Below, piece after piece: positions 13,547-30,133 of a stretch of DNA of 64,000 nt; the stretch's first letter is position 1; every line of letters begins with the position of its first letter. Source of the DNA: Accumulibacter sp. (GTDB lineage Bacteria; Pseudomonadota; Gammaproteobacteria; Burkholderiales; Rhodocyclaceae); NCBI GenBank assembly GCA_017302455.1, contig JAFLDO010000025.1, positions 1 through 64,000 on the forward strand, in the 5' to 3' direction. A program made the position numbers and the translations under genes. Below the pieces are notes generated by a model that searched no databases, was not told the DNA's origin, and saw nothing but the letters and a program-made list of their open reading frames with translations.

Positions 13547-13718
13547 TATAGGTGCGTATTTCGCGGAACGTGACCGGTGGTTTCGCCTCATCGTGACCGG
13601 TGGAGAGATGCCGCATGGATAGTGTTGAATGTTACCTCAATCGGTCACGCTTTTGATGAAATGGCGGTCACGCTCTCGTGAAATCACCGGTCACGATGGC
13701 GTGAAATACGCATATAGG
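13547..13718. mobile_element. 160-bp IS21-like non-autonomous element with 6-bp target duplication
   Basis: Between two direct copies of TATAGG (13547-13552 and 13713-13718) lies a 160-bp segment beginning TGCGTATTTC and ending GAAATACGCA. Each end carries subterminal copies of a GTGACCGGTG-type motif: two on the left (13570, 13593) and three on the right in inverted orientation (13642, 13665, 13685). TG...CA termini, several subterminal repeats and 4-8 bp duplications are the hallmark of IS21-family ends. No transposase gene is present, so this is a MITE-like or internally deleted copy. It sits directly in front of the redox transporter gene. Confidence 0.8.
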
Positions 13719-13848: not shown

Positions 13849-14874
13849 TTACCAGTCAGAGCGCCGCATTCCGAGTTTCTGATGGCACCTGGGGAAGGTC
13901 CCGCAGCCCCAGAAATCGTGTCGGCCGGCCTTGCCCGACACTCGCTTCATCTTGACGCCGCAACTCGGACAGGACGGAACGTTGTAATCACCTGCGGTCG
14001 CAAAGTCCAGCAGAGCATCTTGCGACTCGACAGGTAGTCGCTTGATCATCACCAACAGCATCTGCCCATCAATGAGAGTGATCCGGTTGCTCCTGGCAAA
14101 CGCCTTCGCGTCCTCGGAAAACTGGCTACTCGTCATGAGAAAAGCCTTATCGATCTTCTCGTGGGTCATCACCCCCAGGAGTTCTCGGACAGGCTTGACG
14201 CCGACGAAACGCGCGCCCCACGCCTTGCACTGGACAACGGCTGTCACATCCTCGCCGTCGCCTTGGTACAGCCGAACATCGACACCACCATCTGCGCCCA
14301 AGCTCGTCGCTCGGCTTCGTATTCCCTTGGCTGCGTAGAATCGCTGGCACAGATCTTCGAACCGCTTCCATTCGATGTCGCGCAGCAAGTCCAAAGACCA
14401 CTCCATTGGTCTGGATGTTGCGATCGATTCTGCAGGTGCGGAAAGACTGTAGAGAGGCTCACCCAAGAGTCCTCGTCCGACTGGCGCACTCGGTCGCGCG
14501 TTGGGCCATTCCATATCGACGGGTTCGCGTCGTTCCTGCGGTCGGTCGCTGGCGGCCTCGGCTGTGCTCTGCGACCCCGGACGGGGTGCGTCGCCCAGGA
14601 AAGGCTCGCGAACCGTTGACGCCTCCCTGGCTACCGCCCTTTTCTGAATGGCCAAAGCCACGATGCCGATCAGCAGGAATACGCTGGAGAAAAGCCACGC
14701 GATCCCCGACAAGCTCATTGCTATCGGCTTGAGGTACATACTTGATGACCACATGACAGGCAGAATCCACCTTAAACCGACAAAACAGAGAAGCGCGAGG
14801 ACGATACTCACCTGCCAAGGCAGATCTATGAGAGCGTCAGCCAGGGACTCACTTTTCCTGCCTCTTCGGGCCAT
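13849..14874 (-). CDS. membrane-anchored Mrr-type restriction endonuclease with zinc ribbon
   Basis: 341 residues. Two N-terminal membrane helices (about residues 22-42 and 52-78), a variable linker, then an Mrr-like PD-(D/E)XK domain (about 155-270) with GADGGVDVRLYQ and VVQCKAWG, the Asp...QxK catalytic pattern. The C-terminus is a topoisomerase-type zinc ribbon (CPSCGVKM ... WGCGTFPRC). Last gene of the minus-strand nuclease operon, 96 bp after the large fusion gene. Membrane-tethered Mrr proteins may attack incoming DNA at the envelope; here that is inference. Confidence 0.82.
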   Translation of the reverse strand: MARRGRKSESLADALIDLPWQVSIVLALLCFVGLRWILPVMWSSSMYLKPIAMSLSGIAWLFSSVFLLIGIVALAIQKRAVAREASTVREPFLGDAPRPGSQSTAEAASDRPQERREPVDMEWPNARPSAPVGRGLLGEPLYSLSAPAESIATSRPMEWSLDLLRDIEWKRFEDLCQRFYAAKGIRSRATSLGADGGVDVRLYQGDGEDVTAVVQCKAWGARFVGVKPVRELLGVMTHEKIDKAFLMTSSQFSEDAKAFARSNRITLIDGQMLLVMIKRLPVESQDALLDFATAGDYNVPSCPSCGVKMKRVSGKAGRHDFWGCGTFPRCHQKLGMRRSDW

Positions 14875-14970: not shown

Positions 14971-17900
14971 CTACATCACCTCGAAAATCACACTCATTGG
15001 TTCGCTACCACTGTGGCTTCGGTAGCTCACCGATCCGTGATAGACGAATCTCGCCGCCGTACGGCCCGCCAACCGCGCGTCACGCACAAACAGGTGGATG
15101 CTCATGCCGAGCCGCTGGTGGTCGATGATCTCCCGGCCCCGCTTGCTCGTCGGCGAACTTGAGTTCTGGCTTTGCCAATGGAAGCTGTGCTCATCTAGCC
15201 AATGGTCGAGGTAGCGATGGTCCTCGGATTTGCCCTGCTTGTTGAGGGTCACCAATAGGATGTGAGCCTTCCGCGCCGTCAGAACGACATGCCCGCTGTT
15301 CCAGTTGCCGGGATTGAACGTCTCGCCAAACAGCGGCGGAATCTCCTCGCGCAGCCAGGCTTGGCCAATGGCCATCTCCAGTGGGTCGATAACTGCCTTG
15401 AACCTAGCCAACGTCCGCATTTCATCGCTGGCAGGCAGATCGCGGTAGTCCGGGTTGTTGGCTTTGAGGAGATAGCGGCCATCCGCCGTCTTGTGCACGA
15501 CACGCAAGAGATACTGGTCGTCGCCGGCCGCATCTTGGCGCTCGATCGCCAGGACGCAGCCGGTGATCGACCCGGCGCTGCCGGCACCGAGGTGTTCCAG
15601 CAACAAATAGTCGCCGTTGCGAATCGGCTCCTTGCCGCCATCCATCGAGTTGCCCGAGGCGCGCGCGATGAAGTGGCGTGCCGGGTCAAGGCGACCATGG
15701 CCCGAGCCCACAGATCGGAACTCCGGCGCGTCAGCGCTGCCTGTCCGGAAATGCCCGCACGCGATCCTGAGGTTGGGGAAGAAGGGCAACTCGATGCGGG
15801 ACAGCGCGGCACCACCCGCAGGCCGCCGAAGGTGAATTACGTTGTCGGGGGCTTGTTCCTGCGGGCGTCGCGTCTCGTACGCCGCGAGACGGTAATCTAC
15901 CAGTTCCTGAACGAGTGCAGAGAAAGGCTCCAACTGATCTGCAGGGAGGCTGAAGTTCGGGGCCAAACGTTGATCTTCAACTCTGAAGAAAGCACTGGTC
16001 GCCTCCGCCAGATTCCCGCCGATCCATGCGTTGACCGGATTGCCCAGCCAATAGCGTTGCCAGGCGGCGTCTGTGCCGTCGGCTAGCACCGCCATTTCCG
16101 CCGGCAGATCGGCAAGCAGCGGACGCCTACGCTGTAAGACCCGCCACGAGCGTTCGGCCAGCGCGGAAAGTGTTGGCGGTTTCAGCCAGCCCCCGAGTTC
16201 CTGCAAGGCTTCCAGCATGACCATCTTGAAGCTGCGGGTCATACGGGTTGCCTCGACTTCTCGCAGGAAGGGCAACTGGAACGTGGCGGCTGCCGATTCT
16301 GCCTGGGTTAGGTCACCCATTGCCTGCAACAATTCAAACCAACTGCCGAACTGCCTGCGCATCGTCTGGACGTTGGCACCCGATCGGTAGAACTCGCTGA
16401 GGCAGGGGCGCCGGCCAAGGCCTTCCTTGAGCGCTGCATAGTCCTTCTCGGTACCTTTACCATCGAGCGACTTCAGGAACTCGATCAATTGGAGGTCATA
16501 GTTGACGAAGCAGCCTGCGGGCAGAACCAAACGTTGCTGCTCGACCTGGCGAGCAAATTCCGCCAATTGCCGATAGCTGGCGCCCACGTTGAGTAACGCT
16601 GCGGGCTTATGCAGGAAACTGTGGTGGTTGCCGATGAAGTCAAGAACGACCAGCCGCTCCTTCTCAGTGGTCTTGCGCAGCCCTCGCCCGAGTTGTTGGA
16701 GGAAGAGTACTTTAGATTCGGTGGGGCGCAACATCATTACCGTGTCGATTGCCGGCAGGTCAACCCCTTCGTTGAAGAGATCGACGGAGAAGATCACCCA
16801 AAGGCGGCGATCGCGCAATTGTGCCAAGGCATCGCCGCGACTCATTGACGAGCCGGAATAGACCGCAGCGGCCGCCACGCCAGCCTGAAGGAAGTGCGCC
16901 GCCATGAACTCGGCATGGCGGATCGACATGCAGAAGGCGAGCGTACGTTGCTGACCGCGTTGCCGCCATTCACGTAGGGCATGGCGCGCACGCGCCAAAG
17001 TGGCGAGCTTGTTGGCAAGTTGCTCTGGATCGAAGCGGCCATTGCGCCAAGGGATTTCCCGATAGTCGACTGAATCGTCGTAAATGCCGTAGTAGTGAAA
17101 GGGAGCAAGCAAGCCGCAGTCAATACCCGCGAAGAGGTCGTGCGTGAAGACAAGGTTGTCATCGCACAGCGACAAGATGTCGGATTGATCGGTGCGGTCG
17201 GGCGTCGCCGTCAACCCGAGCAGGAAGCGGGGGGTGAAATAGCTGAGCAGACGCCGATAGGTGGCGGCAGCAGCGTGGTGGAATTCGTCGATGACGAGGT
17301 AGTCGAAATGCCCTGGCAGAAAACGCTCAAGGTGCGAGGAACGGCTGAGGGTCTGAACCGAAGCACACAGTACGTCGACCTCGACATCGCGTCGTTGCCC
17401 CACGTAGAAGCCGACGCGCGATTTGGGTCGGATACGCAGAAAGGTTTCTGCTGCCTGCTCAAGAATTTCTTCGCGGTGCGCGACAAACAAGACGCGGCGG
17501 GCACCTAGCTGTTCCGCATCGAAGACGGCCAGCCAAGTCTTGCCGAGGCCAGTAGCGAGTACGACCAGACCGCGCCGAAACCCCTGCCCGCGAGTCGCCT
17601 GCAACGCGGCCAGGGCGGCCAGTTGTACGCACGTTGCTCGCGGTGGCGCCTCCTGTTCCTGGCTGCCCGGCCCGACTGCCTGTGGGGGCGTAACTCTGCG
17701 GGCTTCATAGCGTTCGATCCACTCATCGGTCAGCAGAACTGTTCTCGGGTGCGTGAAAAGCCCCTCAAACTGCCGCTGAGCTTCGAGAAAGCCATCGTCG
17801 CCGGGATAGTCGATCCGGTAATTCCATTCCAAACCATCTTGCAGAGCTTGGCGGCTGATGTTGCTCGAACCGATAAACGCCGTGCCATGCAGTTGCCCGC

Positions 17901-18831
17901 TCTCGGCATAGCGAGCAAACAAGTACGCCTTCAGGTGAAAGCTACTGTTGGCCGCTTCGTACACGCGGACTTGCGCGCCTTTCTCCTGCAAGAGCAGGAG
18001 TAGACGCAGCGCATCCGGGTCGGTGATATCCAGATAGTCGCTGGTTACCACGCGGAGTCGCGCTGGACGATTCGAGGTTTGGAATGGAGAAGAGAGGGTG
18101 TCATGCAGGTCCGGCAAGAGCAGGCGCAGACCCGTAGCTTTGATGAAGGCAACAGCGAAATCAACTTCCGTCGCTCGGCTGATCGATTGGCAGAGGTGCG
18201 GCAAGAACGGGTTGTCGCCACCGGTAACCAACCTGCTCGCGCCAGCAGCGCGGCTAACCGCAATGGCGTTGATCCACTGCTCTTGCCGGCCGGGCCGTCG
18301 ATCTGCGTTTATCCAGCAATCAAGTGCGTGCAAGCTCGGCAAAGCGGTCAGCCACGCCCGCAGGGTGGTTTCGTTGACATCCGTGTAGTGGCGACCAGCG
18401 TGCTGCCGCTCTCCCTCGCCGACCTTGAAGCTGAGGTAGAACGCTCCGCCCGGCTTGAGCGCCGACCACAAACTCTGCAGCGTCACTGGGATGTCGGCCG
18501 CGGGAAGATGAAGAAGGCTGGCGCAAGCCCAGATACCGTCGTAGAGAGCCTCTTCGGAAACGTCCGCGAAAGTCTTGACGGCGACGGGTTGCTCCAGATG
18601 GCGTGCAGCCAATTCCGCCAGACGTGGCGAAGCATCAAAGGCAACAACCCGGTAGTTGCGCGACAAGAACGCCTTGGCATCACGCCCTGAACCACAGCCT
18701 GCGTCGAGGATAAGTCCACCAGGAACGACATGCGCAAGGAAGCGCGCGTGCAGCGCGGACATATCGACATTCGCGGTCTCGGCAAAGAAGCTCGCAGCGT
18801 TCTCGTCGTAGTACGCCAGGGTGTTTGTCAT
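14971..18831 (-). CDS. methyltransferase-PLD nuclease-helicase-S24-like-DUF3427 fusion protein
   Basis: 1286 residues from the ATG at 18831. In order: class I SAM methyltransferase (about 20-150, ILDAGCGSGRDAKAF, not the DPPY/NPPY DNA-methylase type); PLD-type nuclease (about 200-345, HLK at 299-301 and GSSN at 321-324, one HKD-like half); superfamily 2 helicase with ATGLGKTW (426-433), DEFH (515-518), TATPDRTD and QQLGRGLRK (712-720); a linker; an S24/LexA-like domain (about 1050-1140) with the GNSM serine at 1062 but Arg at 1110 where the catalytic Lys is expected; and a C-terminal DUF3427 domain (about 1165-1286). The PLD-helicase-DUF3427 core is known from restriction/defence contexts. 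The start 41 codons further upstream is less likely because it overlaps the HNH gene. Confidence 0.85.
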   Translation of the reverse strand: MTNTLAYYDENAASFFAETANVDMSALHARFLAHVVPGGLILDAGCGSGRDAKAFLSRNYRVVAFDASPRLAELAARHLEQPVAVKTFADVSEEALYDGIWACASLLHLPAADIPVTLQSLWSALKPGGAFYLSFKVGEGERQHAGRHYTDVNETTLRAWLTALPSLHALDCWINADRRPGRQEQWINAIAVSRAAGASRLVTGGDNPFLPHLCQSISRATEVDFAVAFIKATGLRLLLPDLHDTLSSPFQTSNRPARLRVVTSDYLDITDPDALRLLLLLQEKGAQVRVYEAANSSFHLKAYLFARYAESGQLHGTAFIGSSNISRQALQDGLEWNYRIDYPGDDGFLEAQRQFEGLFTHPRTVLLTDEWIERYEARRVTPPQAVGPGSQEQEAPPRATCVQLAALAALQATRGQGFRRGLVVLATGLGKTWLAVFDAEQLGARRVLFVAHREEILEQAAETFLRIRPKSRVGFYVGQRRDVEVDVLCASVQTLSRSSHLERFLPGHFDYLVIDEFHHAAAATYRRLLSYFTPRFLLGLTATPDRTDQSDILSLCDDNLVFTHDLFAGIDCGLLAPFHYYGIYDDSVDYREIPWRNGRFDPEQLANKLATLARARHALREWRQRGQQRTLAFCMSIRHAEFMAAHFLQAGVAAAAVYSGSSMSRGDALAQLRDRRLWVIFSVDLFNEGVDLPAIDTVMMLRPTESKVLFLQQLGRGLRKTTEKERLVVLDFIGNHHSFLHKPAALLNVGASYRQLAEFARQVEQQRLVLPAGCFVNYDLQLIEFLKSLDGKGTEKDYAALKEGLGRRPCLSEFYRSGANVQTMRRQFGSWFELLQAMGDLTQAESAAATFQLPFLREVEATRMTRSFKMVMLEALQELGGWLKPPTLSALAERSWRVLQRRRPLLADLPAEMAVLADGTDAAWQRYWLGNPVNAWIGGNLAEATSAFFRVEDQRLAPNFSLPADQLEPFSALVQELVDYRLAAYETRRPQEQAPDNVIHLRRPAGGAALSRIELPFFPNLRIACGHFRTGSADAPEFRSVGSGHGRLDPARHFIARASGNSMDGGKEPIRNGDYLLLEHLGAGSAGSITGCVLAIERQDAAGDDQYLLRVVHKTADGRYLLKANNPDYRDLPASDEMRTLARFKAVIDPLEMAIGQAWLREEIPPLFGETFNPGNWNSGHVVLTARKAHILLVTLNKQGKSEDHRYLDHWLDEHSFHWQSQNSSSPTSKRGREIIDHQRLGMSIHLFVRDARLAGRTAARFVYHGSVSYRSHSGSEPMSVIFEVM

Positions 18832-18853
18832 CGGCTGAGTGTCGGTGGGGGCG

Positions 18854-19633
18854 TCAGCAGCCCGCGAAGATGGCTTCGCGATGCTCAGCGAGAAAGCGCC
18901 GGTCGGGGCAAAACTTCTCGGGGAGGTCCAGCGCCTTTGCTTCGTAAGGAGCAAAGTTGTCGCGGATCGCCTGGCTCGTCAGGTGATCCCTGAGCCGCTT
19001 GCTCAACAGTAGACGGTAATCGTCGTCAAATGCAATCAGTCCTTGGTCGAAGGCGCCGTCGTGAAGCCGCGAAAGACAGAGTCCGTTGCGCGGATTCACT
19101 CGATGCGCAGGGTAGCTCGCCCAAGGAAGAATATGGCTGGCGACCAGCAGTTCCGCCACCGGATTGCCGGAAACGCAGCATTCGCAGTGATAGGCTGTCA
19201 GCACCATGCTCCTGAAGAAGCGCTGGGCCAGCCGGACCTTGACCGCTCGTTCCCCTTCCATGTGCACTTGGCCGGGTGGCTCCTGATCCTCACCGGCCAT
19301 TGCCGTCTGCCGACTCGGGTGGACTTGCTCCCTGAGTTGCTCGCTTTCGATCGCCAGCGCTTCCCAGTCTGCATGAAACTCATCCCAAACGGACCGATCG
19401 AGCCGGCTTGCGCCCCTCAGTCCTTTGACGCCACGCGCGGCTTCTTGCGGGTCGAGCGAAGTGAGATTGTTGAGCTTCATCGCGACACTGCCAGGGGTAC
19501 GCCCGAGTGCGCTTGCCAGCTCGATCACCTCAGGCGACCCGCTGTCCTGACGCCCGAACGGGATGCGGCAATACAAGTTCATGACGACGATGAGTTCGTC
19601 GCGGGTCCAGGGTTTTCCTCTCGCGGTGGTCAT
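18854..19633 (-). CDS. HNH endonuclease, first gene of the nuclease operon
   Basis: 259 residues from the ATG at 19633. The N-terminal half begins with a helix-turn-helix-like segment (WTRDELIVVMNLYCRIPFG ... LGRTPGSVAMKLNNL), and the C-terminal half holds an HNH nuclease core: CECC, then VASHILPWASYP, RVNPRNGLCLSRLHDGAFD. It is 22 bp upstream of the fusion gene and certainly co-transcribed. HNH nucleases of this HNH_2-like class often accompany restriction systems. The ORF extending back to 19870 lacks family-like sequence. Confidence 0.88.
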   Translation of the reverse strand: MTTARGKPWTRDELIVVMNLYCRIPFGRQDSGSPEVIELASALGRTPGSVAMKLNNLTSLDPQEAARGVKGLRGASRLDRSVWDEFHADWEALAIESEQLREQVHPSRQTAMAGEDQEPPGQVHMEGERAVKVRLAQRFFRSMVLTAYHCECCVSGNPVAELLVASHILPWASYPAHRVNPRNGLCLSRLHDGAFDQGLIAFDDDYRLLLSKRLRDHLTSQAIRDNFAPYEAKALDLPEKFCPDRRFLAEHREAIFAGC

Positions 19634-20070: not shown

Positions 20071-20496
20071 GTGATCAGCAGTGTCTCCCGTTTGCAGGCA
20101 GCCCTTTCCGCGGGAGTCGCAACGCGCGACCGCGGGGGCGATCAGCCGGCCGACGCTGAGCAGAGCAGCCCGGTCCAGAATGGCCTATCCGTCGAGGAAC
20201 AACGGCAGGTGGATGTGCTGCGGGCGACCGACCGGAACGTGCGTGCGCACGAACTGGCGCACATCGCGGCTGGCGCTGGCCTGACCGGCGCGGCGTCCTT
20301 CACCTATCAGCTTGGCCCGGACAACCAGCGGTACGCTGTGGCTGGCGAGGTGAGTATCGACATCTCTTCCGGTGGCGATCCGGGAGTTTTGGGGACAGGG
20401 AGTTTTGGGGACAGCTGGGAGTTTTGGGGAGTTTTGGGGACAGTATATCGAACTCTATCTGCTGCTTGTCGCACCTTCTCGACGCACCCGCATTGA
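20071..20496 (+). pseudogene. truncated SprA-related metalloprotease
   Basis: The first about 104 residues match the SprA-related / CJM1_0395 putative metalloprotease family: VRAHELAHIAAGAGLTGAASFTYQLGP with the HELAH zinc motif, then YAVAGEVSIDISSGGDP. Exactly after GGDP the sequence runs into the GGGAGTTTTGGGGACA repeat cluster, and the remaining 36 codons are repeat-derived. The family's C-terminal helix-rich part is missing, so the gene looks interrupted. The GTG at 20071 is the likely start. Confidence 0.75.
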
Positions 20497-20568: not shown

Positions 20569-20895
20569 CCTTCAGCCGTCTGGCCCGTCAGCAGCCAGGT
20601 CTCGCCGACCCACAGCGCCAGCGCAAAGCTGACCTCGCCGGTCGTTTCCTCAGGCGAGGGCTTGCATACCGGAAAGCCGCAACGGACAGCGCGAATGCTC
20701 GACGCATTCCCGGTCTCGTCCCGAAGCTCGTCCACCTGCGGCCAGGAGCCACTCGTGAGTCGCTGCCGAGGCTTTCAGTTGATCTGCCGCAAAGTGGCGA
20801 CAGGTAGGACGCTTTGAGGCTTCATGCCCGTGCAGAACACCCAAATGCTGTCATGGCGCTGTAGGATTCAAACCTCTGGCAACGCAGGCTCCCGG
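20569..20895. other. intergenic region upstream of the T1SS genes
   Basis: No gene is supported. A minus-strand frame (20735-20307) stays open for 142 codons but runs through the repeat cluster and shows no recognisable domain. The region should carry the promoter for the secretion genes; no clear -35/-10 pair was found. Confidence 0.4.
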
Positions 20896-23097
20896 ATGAC
20901 TTCCACCGACACCTCCCCGAATCCCCCGACAGGCACGCCGCAGCCCGGCCTCGGCGAGGGCTTGCGCGAGGATCTTCTCCATCACGATCCGCTGCTCGCC
21001 TGCCTCGTCGAGCTGACGCGGCTGCATGGTCGGCCGAGCACGCGCGCGGCATTGTCGGCGGGTCTGCCGCTGGCGGGCGGCGGCCTGACGCCTTCCTTAT
21101 TTGCGCGCGCGGCGGCACGCGCCGGTCTGTCGAGCCGGATCGTGCGCCGGCAACTCGCCGACATCGACAGCGTCCTCCTGCCGGTGATCCTGCTGCTGAA
21201 AGGCGACGGCGCCTGCGTGCTGCTCGGTTGGGACGAGAGCGGCGAGACCGCGCGCCTGCTCTTTCCGGAGACCGGTCAGGGCGAGGTCCTGCTCGGCCGC
21301 GCGGCGCTGAGCGAACGCTACCTGGGAATCGCCGTCTTTGCCCGGCCGCGCTTCAGCTTCGACGCGCGCACGCCGGAGGTCGGCCAGGTCGCCGAACGGC
21401 ACTGGTTCTGGGGCGCCTTGCTCGAGCAGGCGGGGCTGTATCGCGACGTTCTCGGCGCCGCACTGCTGGTCAACATCTTCGCGCTGGTGATGCCGCTTTT
21501 CGTGATGAACGTCTACGATCGCGTCGTCCCCAACAACGCCACCGATACCCTGTGGATGCTGGCGCTGGGCGTGCTGCTGGTGATCGGCATGGACTACATG
21601 CTGCGTCTGCTGCGCGGCCGCTTCATCGATCTCGCCAGTGCGCGCATCGACGTCAAACTGTCGGCCTTGATCATGGAGCGCGTGCTCGGCATGCGCCTGG
21701 AAGCGCGGCCGGCGTCGGTCGGTTCCTTCGCCGCCAATCTGCGCTCGTTCGAGTCGGTGCGCGATTTCATCGCCTCGGCAACCGTTTCGGCCTTGATCGA
21801 TCTGCCGTTCGCGCTGATCTTTCTGCTGGTCATCGTCTGGATTGCCTGGCCGCTGGTCCTGATTCCCCTGCTCGGCCTGGTCGTCGGCGTGATCTATGCC
21901 TACCTCGTCCAGCACCGCATGCACGAACTGGCCGAAACCACCTATCGCGCCACGGCGCAGCGCAATGCGGCGCTGATCGAAAGCCTGACGGCGCTCGAAA
22001 CGATCAAGACGCAGAACGCCGAAGGTGTCGTCCAGAACAAGTGGGAGCGCACGACGGCCTTCCTCGCGCGCAGCGGCGTCCAGTTGCGCCTGCTGTCGTC
22101 GTCGGCCAGCAACGGCGCGGCCGCCGTCACGCAGGTGGTCAATGTCGCGTTGGTGATCGCCGGCGTCTACCTGATCCAGGAGCGCCTGCTGACCATGGGC
22201 GGCCTGATCGCGGTCACCATGCTCGGTGGCCGCGCCATCGCGCCGCTGGCGCAGGTGGTCGGGCTGTTGATGCAATACCAGAACGCCCGCCTGGCGCTGT
22301 CCACGCTCGACAAGATGATGGTGCAGCCGGTCGAGCGTCCGGACGCGACGGCATTCATTCATCGGCCCGAACTGAGCGGCGAGATCGAGTTCCGCCATGT
22401 CTCGTTCAGCTACCCGGAGCAGGGCGAAGCGGCGCTGACCAATGTCTCGCTGCGCATCGCGCCGGGCGAGCGCGTCATCATCATCGGTCGTACCGGCTCT
22501 GGCAAGACGACGCTGCAGAAGCTGATGCTCGGGCTGTACCAGCCGAGCCAGGGCGTGGTGCGTATCGACGGAATCGACCTGCGCCAGCTCGACCCGGCAG
22601 ACCTGCGGCGCAACATCGGTTGCGTCGGCCAGGACGCGACCCTGTTCTACGGTACCCTGCGCGAGAACATCGCCATCGGTGCGCCCTACGCCGACGACGC
22701 GGCGATCGTCACCGCCGCCGAAGTCGCCGGCCTGACGCAGTTCGTCAATCGCCATCCGAAGGGATTCGACATGCTGATTGGCGAACGTGGTGAATCGCTC
22801 TCGGGCGGTCAGCGACAGGAGGTGGCGATTGCCCGCGCGGTGTTGCTGGACCCGCCGATCCTCTTGCTCGATGAACCGACCAGTGCGATGGACTTTTCGA
22901 CCGAGCAGGGTTTCAAGGAACGCCTGATGCGCTTTGCCGCCCACAAGACCGTGATCGTCGTCACCCATCGGACGAGCCTGATCGACCTGGCGACACGGCT
23001 CATCGTCGTCGACGACGGGCGCATCGTCGCCGACGGGCCGCGCGATCAGGTCGTCGAAGCGCTGCAGTCGGGGCGCGTCGGGCGGGCAGCGCCATGA
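20896..23097 (+). CDS. lapB: type I secretion ABC transporter, LapB-like
   Basis: 733 residues from the ATG at 20896. N-terminal C39-like domain in which the catalytic Cys position is Pro (DPLLACLVELTRLHG), so it is non-proteolytic; six membrane helices (about 165-430); ABC ATPase with Walker A IIGRTGSGKTTLQKL, signature LSGGQRQ and Walker B ILLLDEPTSAMD. It exports the RTX adhesin encoded three genes later, with the membrane fusion protein and LapE. The upstream ATG at 20824 would add 24 residues without support. It overlaps the next gene by 4 bp (ATGA). Confidence 0.93.
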   Translation: MTSTDTSPNPPTGTPQPGLGEGLREDLLHHDPLLACLVELTRLHGRPSTRAALSAGLPLAGGGLTPSLFARAAARAGLSSRIVRRQLADIDSVLLPVILLLKGDGACVLLGWDESGETARLLFPETGQGEVLLGRAALSERYLGIAVFARPRFSFDARTPEVGQVAERHWFWGALLEQAGLYRDVLGAALLVNIFALVMPLFVMNVYDRVVPNNATDTLWMLALGVLLVIGMDYMLRLLRGRFIDLASARIDVKLSALIMERVLGMRLEARPASVGSFAANLRSFESVRDFIASATVSALIDLPFALIFLLVIVWIAWPLVLIPLLGLVVGVIYAYLVQHRMHELAETTYRATAQRNAALIESLTALETIKTQNAEGVVQNKWERTTAFLARSGVQLRLLSSSASNGAAAVTQVVNVALVIAGVYLIQERLLTMGGLIAVTMLGGRAIAPLAQVVGLLMQYQNARLALSTLDKMMVQPVERPDATAFIHRPELSGEIEFRHVSFSYPEQGEAALTNVSLRIAPGERVIIIGRTGSGKTTLQKLMLGLYQPSQGVVRIDGIDLRQLDPADLRRNIGCVGQDATLFYGTLRENIAIGAPYADDAAIVTAAEVAGLTQFVNRHPKGFDMLIGERGESLSGGQRQEVAIARAVLLDPPILLLDEPTSAMDFSTEQGFKERLMRFAAHKTVIVVTHRTSLIDLATRLIVVDDGRIVADGPRDQVVEALQSGRVGRAAP

Positions 23098-25231: not shown

Positions 25232-28200
25232 ATGGCTGACAGGACACCTCTCGCACGCGTTTCGGCGATCCAGGGCAAGGCTTTCGCAAAGGACCAGGAC
25301 GGCAATCTGCGTCAATTGCGCATCGGCGATGTGATCTACGAGGGCGACGTCGTCGTCACTGGCGCCGGCAGCCGCGTCGACCTGGCCACCCCCGACAGCC
25401 AGTCGCTTGTGTTGCGCGCCAACGAGACGCTGACGGTCGATGCCGAAGTGTTCGCCTCGGTGAAGCCGGACGCCACGGACGCCGCCCTGCTCGGCGGGGC
25501 AAGGGACGTTGACCGGGTCATCAAGGCGATCAACGAAGGCGGCAGCCTCGACGCGCTACTCGACGAGACGGCGGCTGGCGCGGGCACGCCCGGAGGTGCT
25601 GACGGAGGACCCACGTTTGTTCGCTTGCTGCGCATCGTCGAGAATGTGGATCCGCTGGCTTTTGAGTTTGGCACTGCCAGAACCGCTCCCGTTGACGAGG
25701 TGCTTGGTGGGGCGGGCAGCGCCGCCGACGGCCTGATCGACCTGATCGATGCTGGCTTGGCGGCGCAGAGTGCAGCCACTGCGGCGGCCGCCGTTGGCTC
25801 GATCGCCGCCGCCGGCAACCCAGGCGGTGTCGCCGATACCCCAGTCGCCATCGACACCGTCGCCCCGAGCGTCGTCGTCGACATCGTCGATACCCGCCTG
25901 AACAGCGGCGACAGGGTATCGACCGTCACCTTCACCTTCAGTGACGCTCCGAGCGGCTTCGACCTGGCCGACATTGCTGTGGTCGGCGGCACCCTGAGCG
26001 ACCTGACGCCAACCGCCGACCCGAAAGTCTTCACCGCCACCTTCACAGCGGCTGACGGCTTCACCGGTACCGGCAGCGTTGGCGTTACCGCGGGCAGCTA
26101 TACCGATGCCGCCGGTGATCCTGGCCGTGGCGCCAGCGATACCGTGTCCATCGACACCGTCGCCCCGAGTGTCGTTGTCGACATCGTCGATACCAGCTTG
26201 ACCAGAAGTGACGCGGTGTCGGTCGTCACCTTCACCTTCAGTGACGCTCCGGTGGGCTTTACCCTGGCCGACACCACGGCCGTCGGCGGCACGTTGAGCG
26301 GCCTGACGCCCACCGCCGACCCGAAGGTGTTTACCGCCACCTTCACGGCGGCTGTCGGCTTTACGGGTACCGGTAGCGTTGGCGTTACCACGGGCAGTTA
26401 CACCGATGCCGCCGGTGATCCTGGCCGTGGCGCTAGCGACACCGTTGCGATCGACACTGTCGCCCCGAGCGTCGTCGTTGACATTACCGATCCCAGCCTC
26501 AACAGCGGTGACAAGGTATCGACCGTCACCTTCACCTTCAGCGACGCCCCGGTGGGCTTCACCCTGGCCGCCACCACGGCCGTCGGCGGCACGCTGAGTG
26601 GCCTGACGCCGACGGCCGACCCGAAAGTCTTCACCGCCACCTTCATGGCGACTGATGCTTTCACCGGCACCGGCAGCGTTGCCGTAACCGCGGGCAGCTA
26701 CACCAATGCCGCCGGTAGTCCCGGCGGTGGCGGGAGCGACACCGTCCCCATCGACACCGTGGCCCCAAGCGTCGTCGTCGACATCGTCGACGCCAGCCTG
26801 AACAGCATCGACAAGGTGTCGACCGTCACCTTCACCTTCAGCGACGCCCCGGTGGGCTTTACCCTGGCCGACACCACGGCCGTCGGCGGCACGTTGAGCG
26901 GCCTGACGCCGACCGCTGACCCGAAAGTCTTCACCGCTACGTTCACGGCAACCGACGGCTTCACCGGTCCGGGCAGCGTTGCCGTTACTGCGGGCAGCTA
27001 CACCGATGCCGCCGGGAACCCCGGTACGAGCGGCAGCGACACGGTGCCCATCGATACCGTCGCCCCGAGCGTCATCGTCGACATCGTCGATCCCAGCCTG
27101 AACAGCACCGACAAGGTGTCGACCGTCACCTTCACGTTCAGCGACGCCCCGGTGGGCTTTACCTTGGCCGACACCACGGCCGTCGGCGGCACGCTGAGCG
27201 GCCTCACCGCCACGGCCGACCCGAAAGTCTTCACCGCCACCTTCACGGCAACCGACGGCTTCACCGGCACCGGCAGCGTCAGCGTCGCCGACGCCAGCTA
27301 CACCGATACGGCCGGCAACACCGGAAGCGGCAACAGCGACACGGTGCCCATCGACACCGTTGCCCCGAGCGTCGTGGTCGACATCGTGGACGCCAGCCTG
27401 AACAGCACCGACAAGGTGTCGACCGTCACCTTCACCTTCAGTGACGCCCCGGTGGGCTTCACCCTGGCCGACACCACGGCCGTCGGCGGCACGCTGAGCG
27501 GCCTGACACCGACCGCTGACCCGAAAGTCTTCACCGCCACCTTCACGGCAACCGACGGCTTCACCGGTCCGGGCAGCGTTGCCGTTACTGCGGGCAGCTA
27601 CACCGATGCCGCCGGCAACCCCGGCGGTGGCGGCAGCGACACCGTCCCGATCGACACCGTCGCCCCGAGCGTCGTCGTCGACATCGTCGACACCACCCTG
27701 AACAGCACCGACAAGGTGTCGACCGTCACCTTCACCTTCAGCGATGCCCCGGTGGGCTTTACCCTGGCCGACACCACTGCCGTCGGCGGTACGGTCAGCG
27801 GCCTGACACCGACGGCCGACCCGAAAGTTTTCACCGCCACCTTCACGGCAACCGATGGCTTCACCGGCACCGGCAGCGTCAGCGTCGCCGATGCCAGCTA
27901 CACCGATACGGCCGGGAACCCCGGTACGAGCGGCAGCGACACGGTGCCCATCGATACCGTCGCTCCGAGCGTCATCGTCGACATCGTCGATCCCAGCCTG
28001 AACAGCACCGACAAGGTGTCGACCGTCACCTTTACCTTCAGCGACGCGCCGGTAGGCTTTACCCTGGCCGACACCACGGCCGTCGGTGGCACGCTGAGCG
28101 GCCTGACGCCTACCGCGGATCCGAAAGTCTTCACCGCCATCTTCACGGCAACCGATGGTTTCACCGGTCCGGGCAGCGTTGCCGTTACTACGGGCAGCTA

Positions 28201-30133
28201 CACCGATGCCGCTGGCAACCCCGGTACGAGCGGCAGCGACGCGGTGACCATCGACACCGCGCCGCCAGTCCCGACCATCACCCTCGACGCGAGCATCACG
28301 GCTGACGACCTGATCAGCGCCGCAGAGGCCCGCAGCCCGGTCACCGTTACCGGGACGGCGGGTGGCGACGCCAGGGCTGGCGACACCGTCACCCTGACGA
28401 TCAACGGCAAGCCCTTCACCGGCACCGTCGTCGACACCGCCGGCGTGCTGACCTTTGCCATCGTCGTTCCCGGCGCCGACCTCGCCGCCGACCCCGACCG
28501 GACGATCGACGCCAGCATCACCACCACCGACGCCGCCGGCAATACCGCGACCGCTACCGACAACGAAAGCTACAAGCTCGGACCGGTGGCCGTCGCCGAC
28601 GTCAACTCGGTTTCCGAACTCACCGCCAACACGCTCTATTACAACGATGCCGCAAGCAATATCGGCATCCTTGACCCGGCGACCGGTGCGCGCACGCTGG
28701 TCGGCAATGCCGGCGTCGTCTTCGGAGACATTGCCGTGGGCCCCACCGGCACGCTTTTCGGCATCGCCCTGACGGGCTCGCCCAATACGCTGTACAGCAT
28801 CAATCCGACGACCGCCGCGGCCACCCGGATCGGGCCGGTGACAGGTGCGCCCTTCGTCAATTCGCTGGTTGCCAGTGGTGACGGTCGCCTGTTTGCCGCC
28901 GCCACCAGCAGCGGCGGCGATGTGTACCAGTTGTCAACGACCACCGGCGCCGCGACGCGTGTGGGCAGTTTCGGCCAAGGGTCCTCCGGCGATCTGCTGT
29001 TCTTCGACAACGCGCTGTATCTGTCGACGACCGCCGGCACGATCCGCAAGCTGGATCTGGCGACCGGCAGCGTCTCCACGGTAGTCAGCGGCTTGCCCAC
29101 CGACCTCTACAACCTGGCGCAGACGGATGTCGGGACGTTCGTCGGGAGTACGGCAGGTGGGGCGATGTACAGCATCGACCTTGCCGCAGGGACTGCCGCA
29201 GCGACCGGGGTGGTGACGGCTGGACAGCAGATTTATGGCTTCGCGGCGGCGCCCGTCGGCAGCCCACTGGTGACGGTTGTCGGCGATGTGACGCCGGGAA
29301 CGCCTGGTCAGGACTACGATCCCGACAGCAGTGCCAACCTCACGGTTACCGGCGTCGCTGCGGGCATTCCTGCAGTGCCCCCGGCGGCCGGTGTCGGGGC
29401 GGCTATCGACGGGATCTACGGCAAGGTCGTCATCGCTGCCGATGGCAGCTACAGCTACACGCTGGACAATTCCCGCGCGGCGGTACAGCGGCTTGGCGCC
29501 GGCGAGGTCGGCAGTGACGTCTTCACCTACAGGGTCACCGATGCCGATGGCGGCGTGGATACCGCGACACTGACCATTCAGGTCAACGGCGCCGGCGAAG
29601 TGGCGCCGCCGATCAGGACCGTCGGGACCAGCGGCAACGACGTGCTCAGTGGCAGCATCGCCGCCGACAGCATGCGCGGCGATGCCGGTAACGACACGAT
29701 GAGTGGCGGTCTGGGCGCCGACACCATGATCGGCGGTGCCGGCAACGATCTGATGAGCGGCGGCCTCGGTGCCGACGTCTTCCAGTGGCGTCTTGCCGAT
29801 CGCGGCGCCGCCGGGGCGCCGGCGGTCGATACGGTGACCGACTTCAGCAATTCCTCGCGTGCGTCGGGTGGCGACGTCCTCGATCTTCGCGACCTGCTGC
29901 AAGGGGAGAACTCCTCCTTGAGCAGCCTCGACAACTACCTGCACTTCGACGTTTCGGCAGGCAGCACCACGGTGCAGATCAGCAGCAGTGGTGGCTTCGC
30001 CAGCGGCTACAGCGCTGCTGCCGTTGATCAGCAGGTGGTATTGGCCGGCGTCGACCTGTCTGCCGGCGGCTTGACGACCGACCAGTTGATCATTCAGGAC
30101 CTGCTCACGAAAGGCAAGCTGATTACCGACTAG
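25232..30133 (+). CDS. lapA: giant RTX adhesin with LapG-cleavable retention module
   Basis: 1633 residues. N-terminal retention module (about 1-115) ending in ALLDETAAGAG, containing the TAAG cleavage motif (residues 113-116) used by LapG proteases. Then a spacer, eight near-identical 100-residue Ig/Bap-like repeats (about 206-1005), one Big-type domain, a YVTN/propeller-like region (about 1130-1340, ILDPATGARTLVGNAGVVFG), a VCBS-like repeat (GKVVIAADGSYSYTLDNS), RTX nonapeptides (GNDTMSGGLGADTMIGGAGND) and a T1SS C-terminal secretion signal. It is exported by lapB/lapC/lapE and held at the cell surface until cleaved. Confidence 0.94.
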   Translation: MADRTPLARVSAIQGKAFAKDQDGNLRQLRIGDVIYEGDVVVTGAGSRVDLATPDSQSLVLRANETLTVDAEVFASVKPDATDAALLGGARDVDRVIKAINEGGSLDALLDETAAGAGTPGGADGGPTFVRLLRIVENVDPLAFEFGTARTAPVDEVLGGAGSAADGLIDLIDAGLAAQSAATAAAAVGSIAAAGNPGGVADTPVAIDTVAPSVVVDIVDTRLNSGDRVSTVTFTFSDAPSGFDLADIAVVGGTLSDLTPTADPKVFTATFTAADGFTGTGSVGVTAGSYTDAAGDPGRGASDTVSIDTVAPSVVVDIVDTSLTRSDAVSVVTFTFSDAPVGFTLADTTAVGGTLSGLTPTADPKVFTATFTAAVGFTGTGSVGVTTGSYTDAAGDPGRGASDTVAIDTVAPSVVVDITDPSLNSGDKVSTVTFTFSDAPVGFTLAATTAVGGTLSGLTPTADPKVFTATFMATDAFTGTGSVAVTAGSYTNAAGSPGGGGSDTVPIDTVAPSVVVDIVDASLNSIDKVSTVTFTFSDAPVGFTLADTTAVGGTLSGLTPTADPKVFTATFTATDGFTGPGSVAVTAGSYTDAAGNPGTSGSDTVPIDTVAPSVIVDIVDPSLNSTDKVSTVTFTFSDAPVGFTLADTTAVGGTLSGLTATADPKVFTATFTATDGFTGTGSVSVADASYTDTAGNTGSGNSDTVPIDTVAPSVVVDIVDASLNSTDKVSTVTFTFSDAPVGFTLADTTAVGGTLSGLTPTADPKVFTATFTATDGFTGPGSVAVTAGSYTDAAGNPGGGGSDTVPIDTVAPSVVVDIVDTTLNSTDKVSTVTFTFSDAPVGFTLADTTAVGGTVSGLTPTADPKVFTATFTATDGFTGTGSVSVADASYTDTAGNPGTSGSDTVPIDTVAPSVIVDIVDPSLNSTDKVSTVTFTFSDAPVGFTLADTTAVGGTLSGLTPTADPKVFTAIFTATDGFTGPGSVAVTTGSYTDAAGNPGTSGSDAVTIDTAPPVPTITLDASITADDLISAAEARSPVTVTGTAGGDARAGDTVTLTINGKPFTGTVVDTAGVLTFAIVVPGADLAADPDRTIDASITTTDAAGNTATATDNESYKLGPVAVADVNSVSELTANTLYYNDAASNIGILDPATGARTLVGNAGVVFGDIAVGPTGTLFGIALTGSPNTLYSINPTTAAATRIGPVTGAPFVNSLVASGDGRLFAAATSSGGDVYQLSTTTGAATRVGSFGQGSSGDLLFFDNALYLSTTAGTIRKLDLATGSVSTVVSGLPTDLYNLAQTDVGTFVGSTAGGAMYSIDLAAGTAAATGVVTAGQQIYGFAAAPVGSPLVTVVGDVTPGTPGQDYDPDSSANLTVTGVAAGIPAVPPAAGVGAAIDGIYGKVVIAADGSYSYTLDNSRAAVQRLGAGEVGSDVFTYRVTDADGGVDTATLTIQVNGAGEVAPPIRTVGTSGNDVLSGSIAADSMRGDAGNDTMSGGLGADTMIGGAGNDLMSGGLGADVFQWRLADRGAAGAPAVDTVTDFSNSSRASGGDVLDLRDLLQGENSSLSSLDNYLHFDVSAGSTTVQISSSGGFASGYSAAAVDQQVVLAGVDLSAGGLTTDQLIIQDLLTKGKLITD
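25848..28247. repeat. eight tandem 300-bp repeats inside the adhesin gene
   Basis: The IDTVAPSVVVDI unit recurs every 300 bp exactly (for example near 25848, 26148, 26448, 26748, 27048, 27348, 27648, 27948). Neighbouring units are nearly identical in DNA; units beginning near 27048 and 27948 share the same PGTSGSDTVPIDTVAPSVIV coding. Such homogenised repeats recombine readily, and copy number may vary or be collapsed in assembly. Confidence 0.95.

What the first reader, a model, noticed from the sequence alone, without database searches (positions are those of the whole stretch)
14971..19633. Candidate defence operon: HNH nuclease + methyltransferase/PLD/helicase/S24/DUF3427 fusion + membrane Mrr nuclease
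Three minus-strand genes (22-bp and 96-bp gaps) encode three different nucleases and one very large multi-domain protein. The PLD-helicase-DUF3427 core is known from restriction-like contexts, but the N-terminal class I methyltransferase fused in the same chain, and the following membrane-anchored Mrr/zinc-ribbon protein, make an arrangement I cannot match to a named system. The methyltransferase lacks DNA-methylase motifs (no DPPY/NPPY), so it may modify a protein, a small molecule or RNA rather than provide classical self-protection.
Basis: partly seen in the sequence, partly recalled or inferred. Interest (0 to 1): 0.85.

Follow-up and report, generated by a model that had tools for sequence, protein, structure and literature searches.

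The report
DNA-cutting defence enzyme with fused methylase
A bacterial enzyme that probably shreds foreign DNA carries a built-in methylating enzyme of a type not known to act on DNA; relatives of that methylating enzyme sit beside several different DNA-cutting proteins, which suggests an unrecognised helper part of bacterial restriction.

Summary
The three genes are real and intact, but HNH-fusion-Mrr is not a conserved trio: an HNH homologue lies within 6 kb of the nuclease in 6 of 87 related loci, an Mrr homologue near only a few. What is conserved is the large protein: a SauUSI-like PLD nuclease/SF2 ATPase with S24-like and DUF3427 parts plus a small class I methyltransferase (MT-A). In relatives without the fused domain an MTase gene usually abuts the nuclease gene, or a HIT nucleotide-hydrolase domain takes its place: 83 of 86 loci of the clade (80 by gene calls, 3 more by six-frame search) against 2 of 17 outgroup rows. 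MT-A searched alone sits beside nuclease-type genes in 9 of 10 strong hits (window included) among 398 evenly drawn genomes, including an unrelated HNH family. NudG-like NUDIX genes occur in a few of these operons. I read it as a probably modification-directed restriction nuclease with a dedicated MTase accessory. MT-A lacks DNA-methylase motifs and HIT can replace it, so I favour a nucleotide-level substrate (inferred); a non-canonical R-M 'M' subunit is the main rival. New variant of a known kind; function untested.

The parts
18246..18831 (-). MT-A domain (residues 1-195): class I SAM methyltransferase at the N-terminus of the fusion
   Evidence: Pfam Methyltransf_25; AlphaFold pLDDT 97.5; Foldseek top hits 3e23, 5ufm; homologues fused or adjacent in related loci
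17640..18243 (-). PLD nuclease domain with HxK (FHLK) and GSSN motifs, as in SauUSI (approximate limits)
   Evidence: Pfam PLDc_2; HxK pattern in 26 of 27 rows, GxSN in 27 of 27
16492..17639 (-). SF2 helicase-like ATPase (GLGKT, DEFHH, TATP, QQLGRGLR; approximate limits)
   Evidence: ResIII and Helicase_C; each motif in 27 of 27 rows
15772..16491 (-). helical region in the place of SauUSI's coupler, with a weak HNH_repeat match (approximate limits)
   Evidence: Pfam; helices in model m637758d088b3
15382..15771 (-). S24-like domain, Lys replaced by Arg (approximate limits)
   Evidence: weak Pfam S24 match
14971..15381 (-). DUF3427 C-terminal part, presumed target-recognition region (approximate limits)
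   Evidence: Pfam DUF3427 1e-15, profile positions 135-245 of 280; Foldseek alignment to SauUSI
14971..18831 (-). whole fusion gene, 1286 aa
18854..19633 (-). HNH nuclease gene, an occasional neighbour
   Evidence: Pfam HNH_2 4e-11; PADLOC PDLC04132 3e-94; 71% homologue directly upstream of the fusion in L072
13849..14874 (-). membrane-anchored Mrr-type nuclease with zinc ribbon, probably a separate defence neighbour
   Evidence: Pfam Mrr_cat 2e-29
13642..13709 (.). GGTCACG-N6-CGTGAAAT-type repeats at the left border; look like a transposon end (by eye)
20382..20443 (.). GGGAGTTTTGGGGACAG repeats at the right border, inside the end of the SprA-related ORF

Best explanation
The large protein is a SauUSI-like restriction enzyme: the C-terminal DUF3427 region recognises modified foreign DNA, the SF2 ATPase translocates on it and a PLD nuclease dimer shreds it (inferred from SauUSI). 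The fused MTase is a dedicated accessory that this clade keeps as a fused domain or an abutting gene, or replaces by a HIT domain, and that also partners other nuclease families. I think it acts at the level of nucleotides rather than by sequence-specific DNA methylation, doing a job comparable to that of the HIT and NudG-like NUDIX partners: keeping nucleotides that would make host DNA a target out of play, or processing a nucleotide ligand tied to nuclease control. Shown here: intact motifs, SauUSI-like domain order, conserved association, exchange of the module between relatives. Inferred: modification-dependence, shredding, the nucleotide substrate and the self-protection role. Confidence about 0.8 for the SauUSI-like nuclease, about 0.9 that the MTase is a functional partner, about 0.35 for the nucleotide-level substrate.
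For: SauUSI 7clg is the best PDB match by sequence (1.8e-83, residues 204-837) and in Foldseek (6e-42 over 1111 alignment columns); PADLOC mREase_IV 2e-106. In the clade with at least 43% identity to the window's nuclease part, 80 of 85 tree rows carry MT-A, MT-B or HIT fused or within 1.5 kb, against 2 of 17 outgroup rows (two of the 17 are one locus fetched twice); six-frame search adds L100, L108 and the untreed L074, giving 83 of 86. Fusion of MT-A needs one change on the tree, the kind of module 13. Evenly drawn genomes alone: 10 of 13 with a clade-level match have a module, the other three (L177, L188, L037) being broken or shortened copies; 2 of 20 loci of the outgroup type. MT-A as query: 9 of 10 strong hits in 398 genomes, window included, have a nuclease-type partner; IMG/VR 7 of 9 strong loci, two of them near-identical; plasmids 7 of 13 regions fetched. 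MT-A is acidic (median pI 5.5) and without DNA-MTase motif IV in 22 of 22; its best fold matches are an MTase of unknown substrate and a toxoflavin-type N-methylase, followed by other small-molecule and peptide MTases. HIT triad in 9 of 9, Nudix box in 3 of 3. NUDIX partners match the NudG model best in L081 and L104 and PADLOC PDC-S07 in the three scanned. PMC12813430 (passage): PDC-S07 and type IV RM co-localised in 23 of 23 occurrences in S. suis. PMC5158307 (passage): NudG kcat/Km 1.3e6 M-1 s-1 for 5-methyl-dCTP, 4.7e4 for CTP. L223 holds a full-length SauUSI-type gene, NUDIX, MT-A and HNH in a row.
Against: No substrate is known for MT-A or for its nearest solved relative. NUDIX is in only 6 of 102 tree rows; its NudG scores are below the curated cut-off, and other models score higher in L141 and L181. 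PDC-S07 is in 99% of Enterobacter genomes (PMC12851794, passage), so that model also catches a near-universal gene. MT-A with a lone HNH nuclease on plasmids and prophage-like contigs looks like an ordinary two-gene R-M layout. L122 and L144 have no module, nor do two plasmid relatives (L220, L221) or three broken or shortened genome copies. Six of 13 plasmid MT-A regions, 2 of 9 IMG/VR loci and 1 of 10 genome loci lack a recognised nuclease partner. Some MT-B genes are convergent and downstream (L060, L105, L175), not operon-like. The Foldseek match to SauUSI has low whole-chain TM (0.28-0.35) and the model pTM is 0.55.
Confidence: 0.45

Rival explanations
1. MT-A is a minimal, non-canonical DNA-modifying subunit: these are R-M systems in which it marks self DNA by unusual chemistry and the partner nuclease cuts unmarked DNA.
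For: Two-gene MTase + nuclease layout with different nucleases (SYKFAL-HNH, PLD-helicase, another helicase) on chromosomes, plasmids and prophage-like contigs; MT-A without a nuclease on the phage-like contigs L283 and L290, as orphan MTases of phages often are (recalled).
Against: 195 aa, no added target-recognition domain, acidic, no motif IV of DNA MTases; HIT domains, which do not methylate, take the same position in a sister branch; no DNA MTase among the 50 fold matches shown, though two RNA-modifying enzymes are.
Confidence: 0.27
2. MT-A is a SAM-binding sensor or regulator of the nuclease, for example responding to phage enzymes that destroy SAM.
For: The SAM-site motif (D43, G45, G47, G49, R50, D51) is invariant in all 22 rows of A4; fusion to the nuclease chain would suit allosteric control.
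Against: Residues outside that motif are also invariant (for example K136, R147, W186, N188), which suggests a substrate; HIT and NUDIX have intact catalytic motifs.
Confidence: 0.12
3. The PLD-helicase family is a DNA-repair machine for damaged or blocked ends; HIT, SprT-like protease, NUDIX and MTase are repair helpers.
For: A SprT-like gene overlaps the HIT-fused gene in 4 of 8 HIT-fused rows; PLD and RadD-like helicase parts.
Against: Patchy presence: full-length fusion in 3 of 28 genomes of the genus, pieces in at least G013 and G015; broken copies; copies on plasmids; neighbours of relatives such as ABC-three-component, SIR2, SoFic and GmrSD genes; closest solved relative is SauUSI, a proven restriction enzyme.
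Confidence: 0.1
4. One reading: HNH + fusion + Mrr act together as one three-nuclease defence system.
For: Co-directional genes with 22- and 96-nt gaps; HNH 71% identical directly upstream of the fusion in L072; Mrr homologue next to a SauUSI-like gene in G033:C93 and near the fusion in L076 and L095.
Against: The trio was seen in none of the 87 other loci examined for both neighbours; HNH alone in 6 of 87; 0 of 20 other HNH homologues beside such a nuclease; Mrr homologues of 3 relatives elsewhere.
Confidence: 0.06

Closest known systems
SauUSI (type IV restriction enzyme of Staphylococcus aureus; PDB 7clg; PMC7913695 and PMC3874153, passages read)
   Same: Single-chain PLD nuclease (HxK), SF2 helicase-like ATPase, helical coupler, C-terminal DUF3427/TRD; best sequence match and best Foldseek match
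   Different: N-terminal methyltransferase and an S24-like insertion, divergent C-terminus; the passages describe SauUSI as a single polypeptide sufficient for activity, without them
PADLOC mREase_IV PDLC03659
   Same: E 2e-106
   Different: The best stretch covers the helicase part (451-816 of the longer ORF); the MTase is no part of it
RPA2492 (PDB 3e23), uncharacterised class I MTase
   Same: Closest structure of MT-A: TM 0.92, 33% identity
   Different: Free-standing protein, substrate unknown
NudG-type pyrimidine (deoxy)nucleoside triphosphate diphosphatase / PADLOC PDC-S07
   Same: NUDIX partner matches the NudG model best in two of four scanned and PDC-S07 at 3e-46 to 1e-50 in three of three scanned
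   Different: Not in the window; scores below the curated NudG cut-off
mad2 of MADS (PADLOC PDLC04134)
   Same: MTase domain similarity, 2e-14 to 2e-17 for MT-A
   Different: Covers only part of the 492-position model; no other mad model among the hits of the three window proteins
Type I / Type ISP R-M enzymes (EcoAI-type R subunit, LlaBIII)
   Same: Helicase region similarity
   Different: No DNA-MTase motif IV in the window protein

Membership tests
SauUSI-like restriction enzymes | PLD nuclease domain with HxK motif | tested here: met
   Pfam PLDc_2; HxK pattern in 26 of 27 rows, GxSN in 27 of 27
SauUSI-like restriction enzymes | SF2 ATPase with intact motifs | tested here: met
   each motif in 27 of 27 rows
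SauUSI-like restriction enzymes | C-terminal DUF3427 / SRA-fold target-recognition domain | tested here: inconclusive
   DUF3427 1e-15 over profile positions 135-245 of 280; Foldseek alignment to SauUSI over 1111 columns but low whole-chain TM; SRA fold of this part not tested alone
Type IV systems | cleavage depends on DNA modification | not testable with these tools
   needs biochemistry
Type IV systems | no methylase encoded (as stated in PMC11514479, passage) | tested here: not met
   MT-A or MT-B fused or adjacent in 71 of 85 tree rows by gene calls, though without DNA-MTase motifs; so not filed as a plain type IV system
Fused R-M enzymes (IIG / ISP) | DNA-MTase motif IV ([DNS]PP[YFW] or PC[QN]) | tested here: not met
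   0 of 22 MT-A and 0 of 8 MT-B
MADS | mad gene set around mad2 | tested here: not met
   only the MTase domain matches mad2, and no other mad model is among the hits of the three window proteins; genes beyond these three were not scanned
Three-gene HNH/fusion/Mrr system (reader) | conserved neighbourhood | tested here: not met

The most novel reading that the evidence does not exclude
MT-A, HIT and NudG-like NUDIX are members of one nucleotide-level immunity layer attached to modification-sensing nucleases (PLD-helicase-DUF3427, SYKFAL-HNH, SYKFAL-HNH with an S24-DUF3427-like end). They destroy, block or chemically tag modified nucleotides, for instance those salvaged from shredded phage DNA, so that host DNA never acquires the mark that its own nuclease attacks: self-protection by pool hygiene instead of genome methylation.
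Probability: 0.28. Interest if true: 0.87.

Novelty: new variant of a known kind. Interest (0 to 1): 0.62.

Why it matters
Nucleases that attack modified DNA must spare a host that meets modified nucleotides from degraded phage DNA; how they do so is, as far as I know, not explained. A conserved small MTase shared by several nuclease families, replaced by HIT and at times joined by NudG-like NUDIX in relatives, makes the question directly testable with small enzymes. If MT-A instead modifies DNA, it would be an unusually small new kind of restriction 'M' enzyme. Either way the pairing is a handle for finding restriction systems among genes now annotated only as 'class I SAM-dependent methyltransferase' and 'HNH endonuclease'.

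Tried and rejected
Rejected: (1) the trio as a system. (2) The fusion as an assembly error: it recurs at full length in other genomes and genera. (3) Chance adjacency of a common MTase: among 398 even genomes only 27 have a match at E<=1e-35, 10 of them strong (196 bits or more), and 9 of these 10 sit beside nuclease-type genes; the neighbours of the 17 weaker matches were not examined. (4) S24 as an active protease: Lys is Arg in 24 of 24. (5) A simple empty site in relatives: in the three genus genomes that have both flanking genes tested (PilZ and T1SS), these lie on different contigs, which neither shows nor excludes one. Led nowhere: promoter/terminator scan, tRNA scan, viral-contig scan with the helicase (19 loci at 35% identity or less, not examined further), paper searches for MADS mad2 and for four other term sets.

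Rows dropped or added: L080 (same contig as L053) was left out; loci whose helicase region was cut or broken failed the coverage filter (e.g. L096, L101, L120); L074 was missed because my simple gene caller chose antisense ORFs and was recovered by tblastn. L137, counted as lacking a module, shows only what looks like the tail of a HIT domain at its contig end (by eye). Outgroup rows L029 and L179 are the same locus. The 87 loci of the neighbour counts are 78 named loci and 9 genome loci; flanks are often cut by contig ends. Plasmid partner counts use 13 fetched regions, chosen by me, of 32 hit records; two of the 13 (L218, L219) had first been found with the whole fusion as query, as had the phage-collection loci L223 and L224, which are not used in the unbiased counts. 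In IMG/VR 4 of 13 loci were weak and not counted, and L284 and L285 are near-identical.
Full report
OBSERVATION. Searches confirm three minus-strand genes: HNH (18854-19633), a 1286-aa fusion (14971-18831) and a membrane/Mrr/zinc-ribbon gene (13849-14874), with gaps of 22 and 96 nt. Pfam finds MTase, PLDc_2, ResIII, Helicase_C and DUF3427 above cut-off; HNH_repeat and S24 are just below it. PADLOC names the helicase part mREase_IV (2e-106) and the HNH protein PDLC04132 (3e-94).

WHAT THE LARGE PROTEIN IS. The best solved relative is SauUSI, by sequence (1.8e-83 over residues 204-837) and in Foldseek (6e-42 over 1111 columns). The whole-chain TM is low (0.28-0.35) and the model has pLDDT 80.6 and pTM 0.55, so domain packing is not reliable. 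Catalytic motifs hold across 27 homologues: HxK pattern in 26; GxSN, Walker A, DEFHH, TATP and QQxGRGxR in 27 each. For SauUSI the papers (PMC7913695 and PMC3874153, passages read) describe a PLD nuclease dimer, a translocating ATPase, a helical coupler and a C-terminal SRA-fold domain that reads 5-methyl- or 5-hydroxymethylcytosine; transfer of that mechanism to this protein is inference. The S24-like domain has Arg at the Lys position in 24 of 24 S24-bearing rows and a Ser motif by pattern in 22 of them, so I do not read it as a protease (LexA alignment recalled). dN/dS between the window and the 82% identical copy is 0.11 overall, 0.11 for the MTase and 0.05 for the helicase; the helical region between ATPase and S24 is the least constrained at 0.21.

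THE CONSERVED UNIT. On a FastTree of 102 nuclease rows, the clade with at least 43% identity to the window has 85 rows: MT-A fused 38, MT-A adjacent 25 (one with MT-B as well), MT-B (a second MTase type, 20-24% identical to the window's) adjacent 8, HIT fused 8, HIT adjacent 1, none 5. Six-frame search finds MT-B beside L100 and MT-A beside L108 and shows the untreed L074 to be a fusion, so 83 of 86. L122 and L144 remain without a module; L137 shows only what looks like a HIT tail at its contig end (by eye). Outside the clade 2 of 17 rows have any module. Two plasmid relatives (L220, L221; 49-51%) have none. In the evenly drawn samples alone, 10 of 13 genomes with a clade-level match carry a module, the other three (L177, L188, L037) being broken or shortened copies, against 2 of 20 loci of the outgroup type; these loci extend only 1.5 kb beyond the match. 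Adjacent MTase genes mostly overlap or abut the nuclease start, while MT-B is convergent and downstream in L060, L105 and L175. MT-A fusion needs one change on the tree; the kind of module needs 13.

MT-A ON ITS OWN. The MT-A profile (A4) matches 27 of 398 phylum genomes at E<=1e-35, 10 of them strongly. Of those 10 loci, 4 are with the PLD-helicase (window included), 3 with an HNH protein that I call SYKFAL-HNH, 1 with SYKFAL-HNH fused to an S24-DUF3427-like end, 1 with another helicase bearing part of such an end, and 1 beside a GNAT gene. In IMG/VR 7 of 9 strong loci (two near-identical) have such a partner; in plasmids 7 of 13 fetched regions of 32 hit records. Annotations on plasmids show the same 'class I SAM-dependent methyltransferase' + 'HNH endonuclease' pairs. 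A human-gut scaffold (L223) has a full-length SauUSI-type gene (PDLC03658 9e-190), NUDIX, MT-A and HNH in a row; L224 has GmrSD_N, MT-A and a helicase; both were found with the whole fusion as query.

WHAT MT-A MAY DO. The domain model is very good (pLDDT 97.5). The best folds are RPA2492 (3e23, substrate unknown) and 1,6-didemethyltoxoflavin N1-methyltransferase, then mostly small-molecule and peptide MTases, with two RNA-modifying enzymes (Bud23, CmoA) and no DNA MTase among the 50 rows shown. It is acidic and without DNA-MTase motif IV. HIT domains take the same N-terminal position in a sister branch, with HxHxH in 9 of 9, and NUDIX genes with intact boxes join some operons. The NUDIX proteins match the NudG model best in L081 and L104, second in L141 and third in L181, all below the curated cut-off, and PADLOC PDC-S07 in three of three scanned. 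PMC5158307 (passage) tabulates E. coli NudG as far more active on 5-methyl-dCTP than on CTP, and PMC12813430 (passage) reports PDC-S07 and type IV RM consistently co-localised, 23 of 23, in S. suis. This is why I favour a nucleotide-level role linked to modified bases. It is an inference: NUDIX is in 6 of 102 tree rows, PDC-S07 also catches a near-universal Enterobacter gene (PMC12851794, passage), and a nuclease + MTase pair is also the layout of R-M systems.

THE NEIGHBOURS. HNH homologues occur within 6 kb of the nuclease in 6 of 87 loci besides the window, once directly upstream at 71% identity (L072). Among 20 other HNH homologues in the even sample, none has the nuclease, an MTase, HIT or NUDIX within 1.5 kb. 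Mrr homologues in three relatives likewise have none, one lying beside what looks by eye like a type I DNA-methylase gene (L260); a weaker homologue sits next to a different SauUSI-like gene in G033, and others near fusions in L076 and L095. The likeliest reading is defence-island clustering. Short repeats border the cluster; the two patterns tested are found nowhere else in the draft genome, and the right set lies in the end of the SprA-related ORF.

NOVELTY. In the rows listed and passages read from ten searches of an open-licence PMC library I saw no description of an MTase- or HIT-bearing SauUSI-like enzyme or of the MT-A/HNH pair; several listings were cut to the best rows, and subscription papers and preprints are not covered. 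The PLD-helicase-DUF3427 core is known and the PDC-S07/type IV link is in print as a co-localisation; the MTase/HIT exchange and the MT-A partner range appear to be new.

Noticed in passing
window 25232-30133, repeats 25848-28263: Giant adhesin with LapA-type retention module and T1SS target domain; about 8 copies of a 300-bp repeat at 85% match, near a LssB-type T1SS transporter gene (20824-23097).
   Followed up: no
window 13642-13709 and 20382-20443: Short direct repeats at both borders of the cluster; the two patterns tested occur nowhere else in the draft genome. The right set lies in the end of the SprA-related ORF (20071-20496), whose Pfam match is partial.
   Followed up: partly
L138, L141, L145, L146: SprT-like protease gene overlapping the start of a HIT-PLD-helicase fusion gene, a possible repair-like or alternative module.
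   Followed up: partly
L252, L253, L255, L257, L282, L284-L287, L289: SYKFAL-HNH nuclease family paired with MT-A on chromosomes and prophage-like contigs, also on plasmids (L296-L298, L300, L304); carries an S24-DUF3427-like end in L255 and L287.
   Followed up: partly
L283, L290: MT-A without a recognised nuclease partner on phage-like contigs (L290 near a ThyX-like gene by eye), possibly counter-defence.
   Followed up: no
L096, L130, L141, L148, L151: A large helicase family (1,711-1,727 aa in four loci, shorter pieces in L141 and L148) recurs within 6 kb of the nuclease in five loci; the L096 member has DpdF/PsyrT/GajB-like parts.
   Followed up: no
L218: MT-A/PLD-helicase pair next to an ABC-three-component system on a Pseudoalteromonas plasmid.
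   Followed up: no
G036:C34 and G013:C90 (L055, L056): Eroded remnants of the fusion in relatives, as expected of a gene gained and lost.
   Followed up: no
loci L262-L281, family code f225: Homologues of the window's HNH protein: 15 of 20 even-sample loci belong to one family of relatives with genomes of 3 Mb or less, without nuclease or MTase neighbours within 1.5 kb.
   Followed up: no
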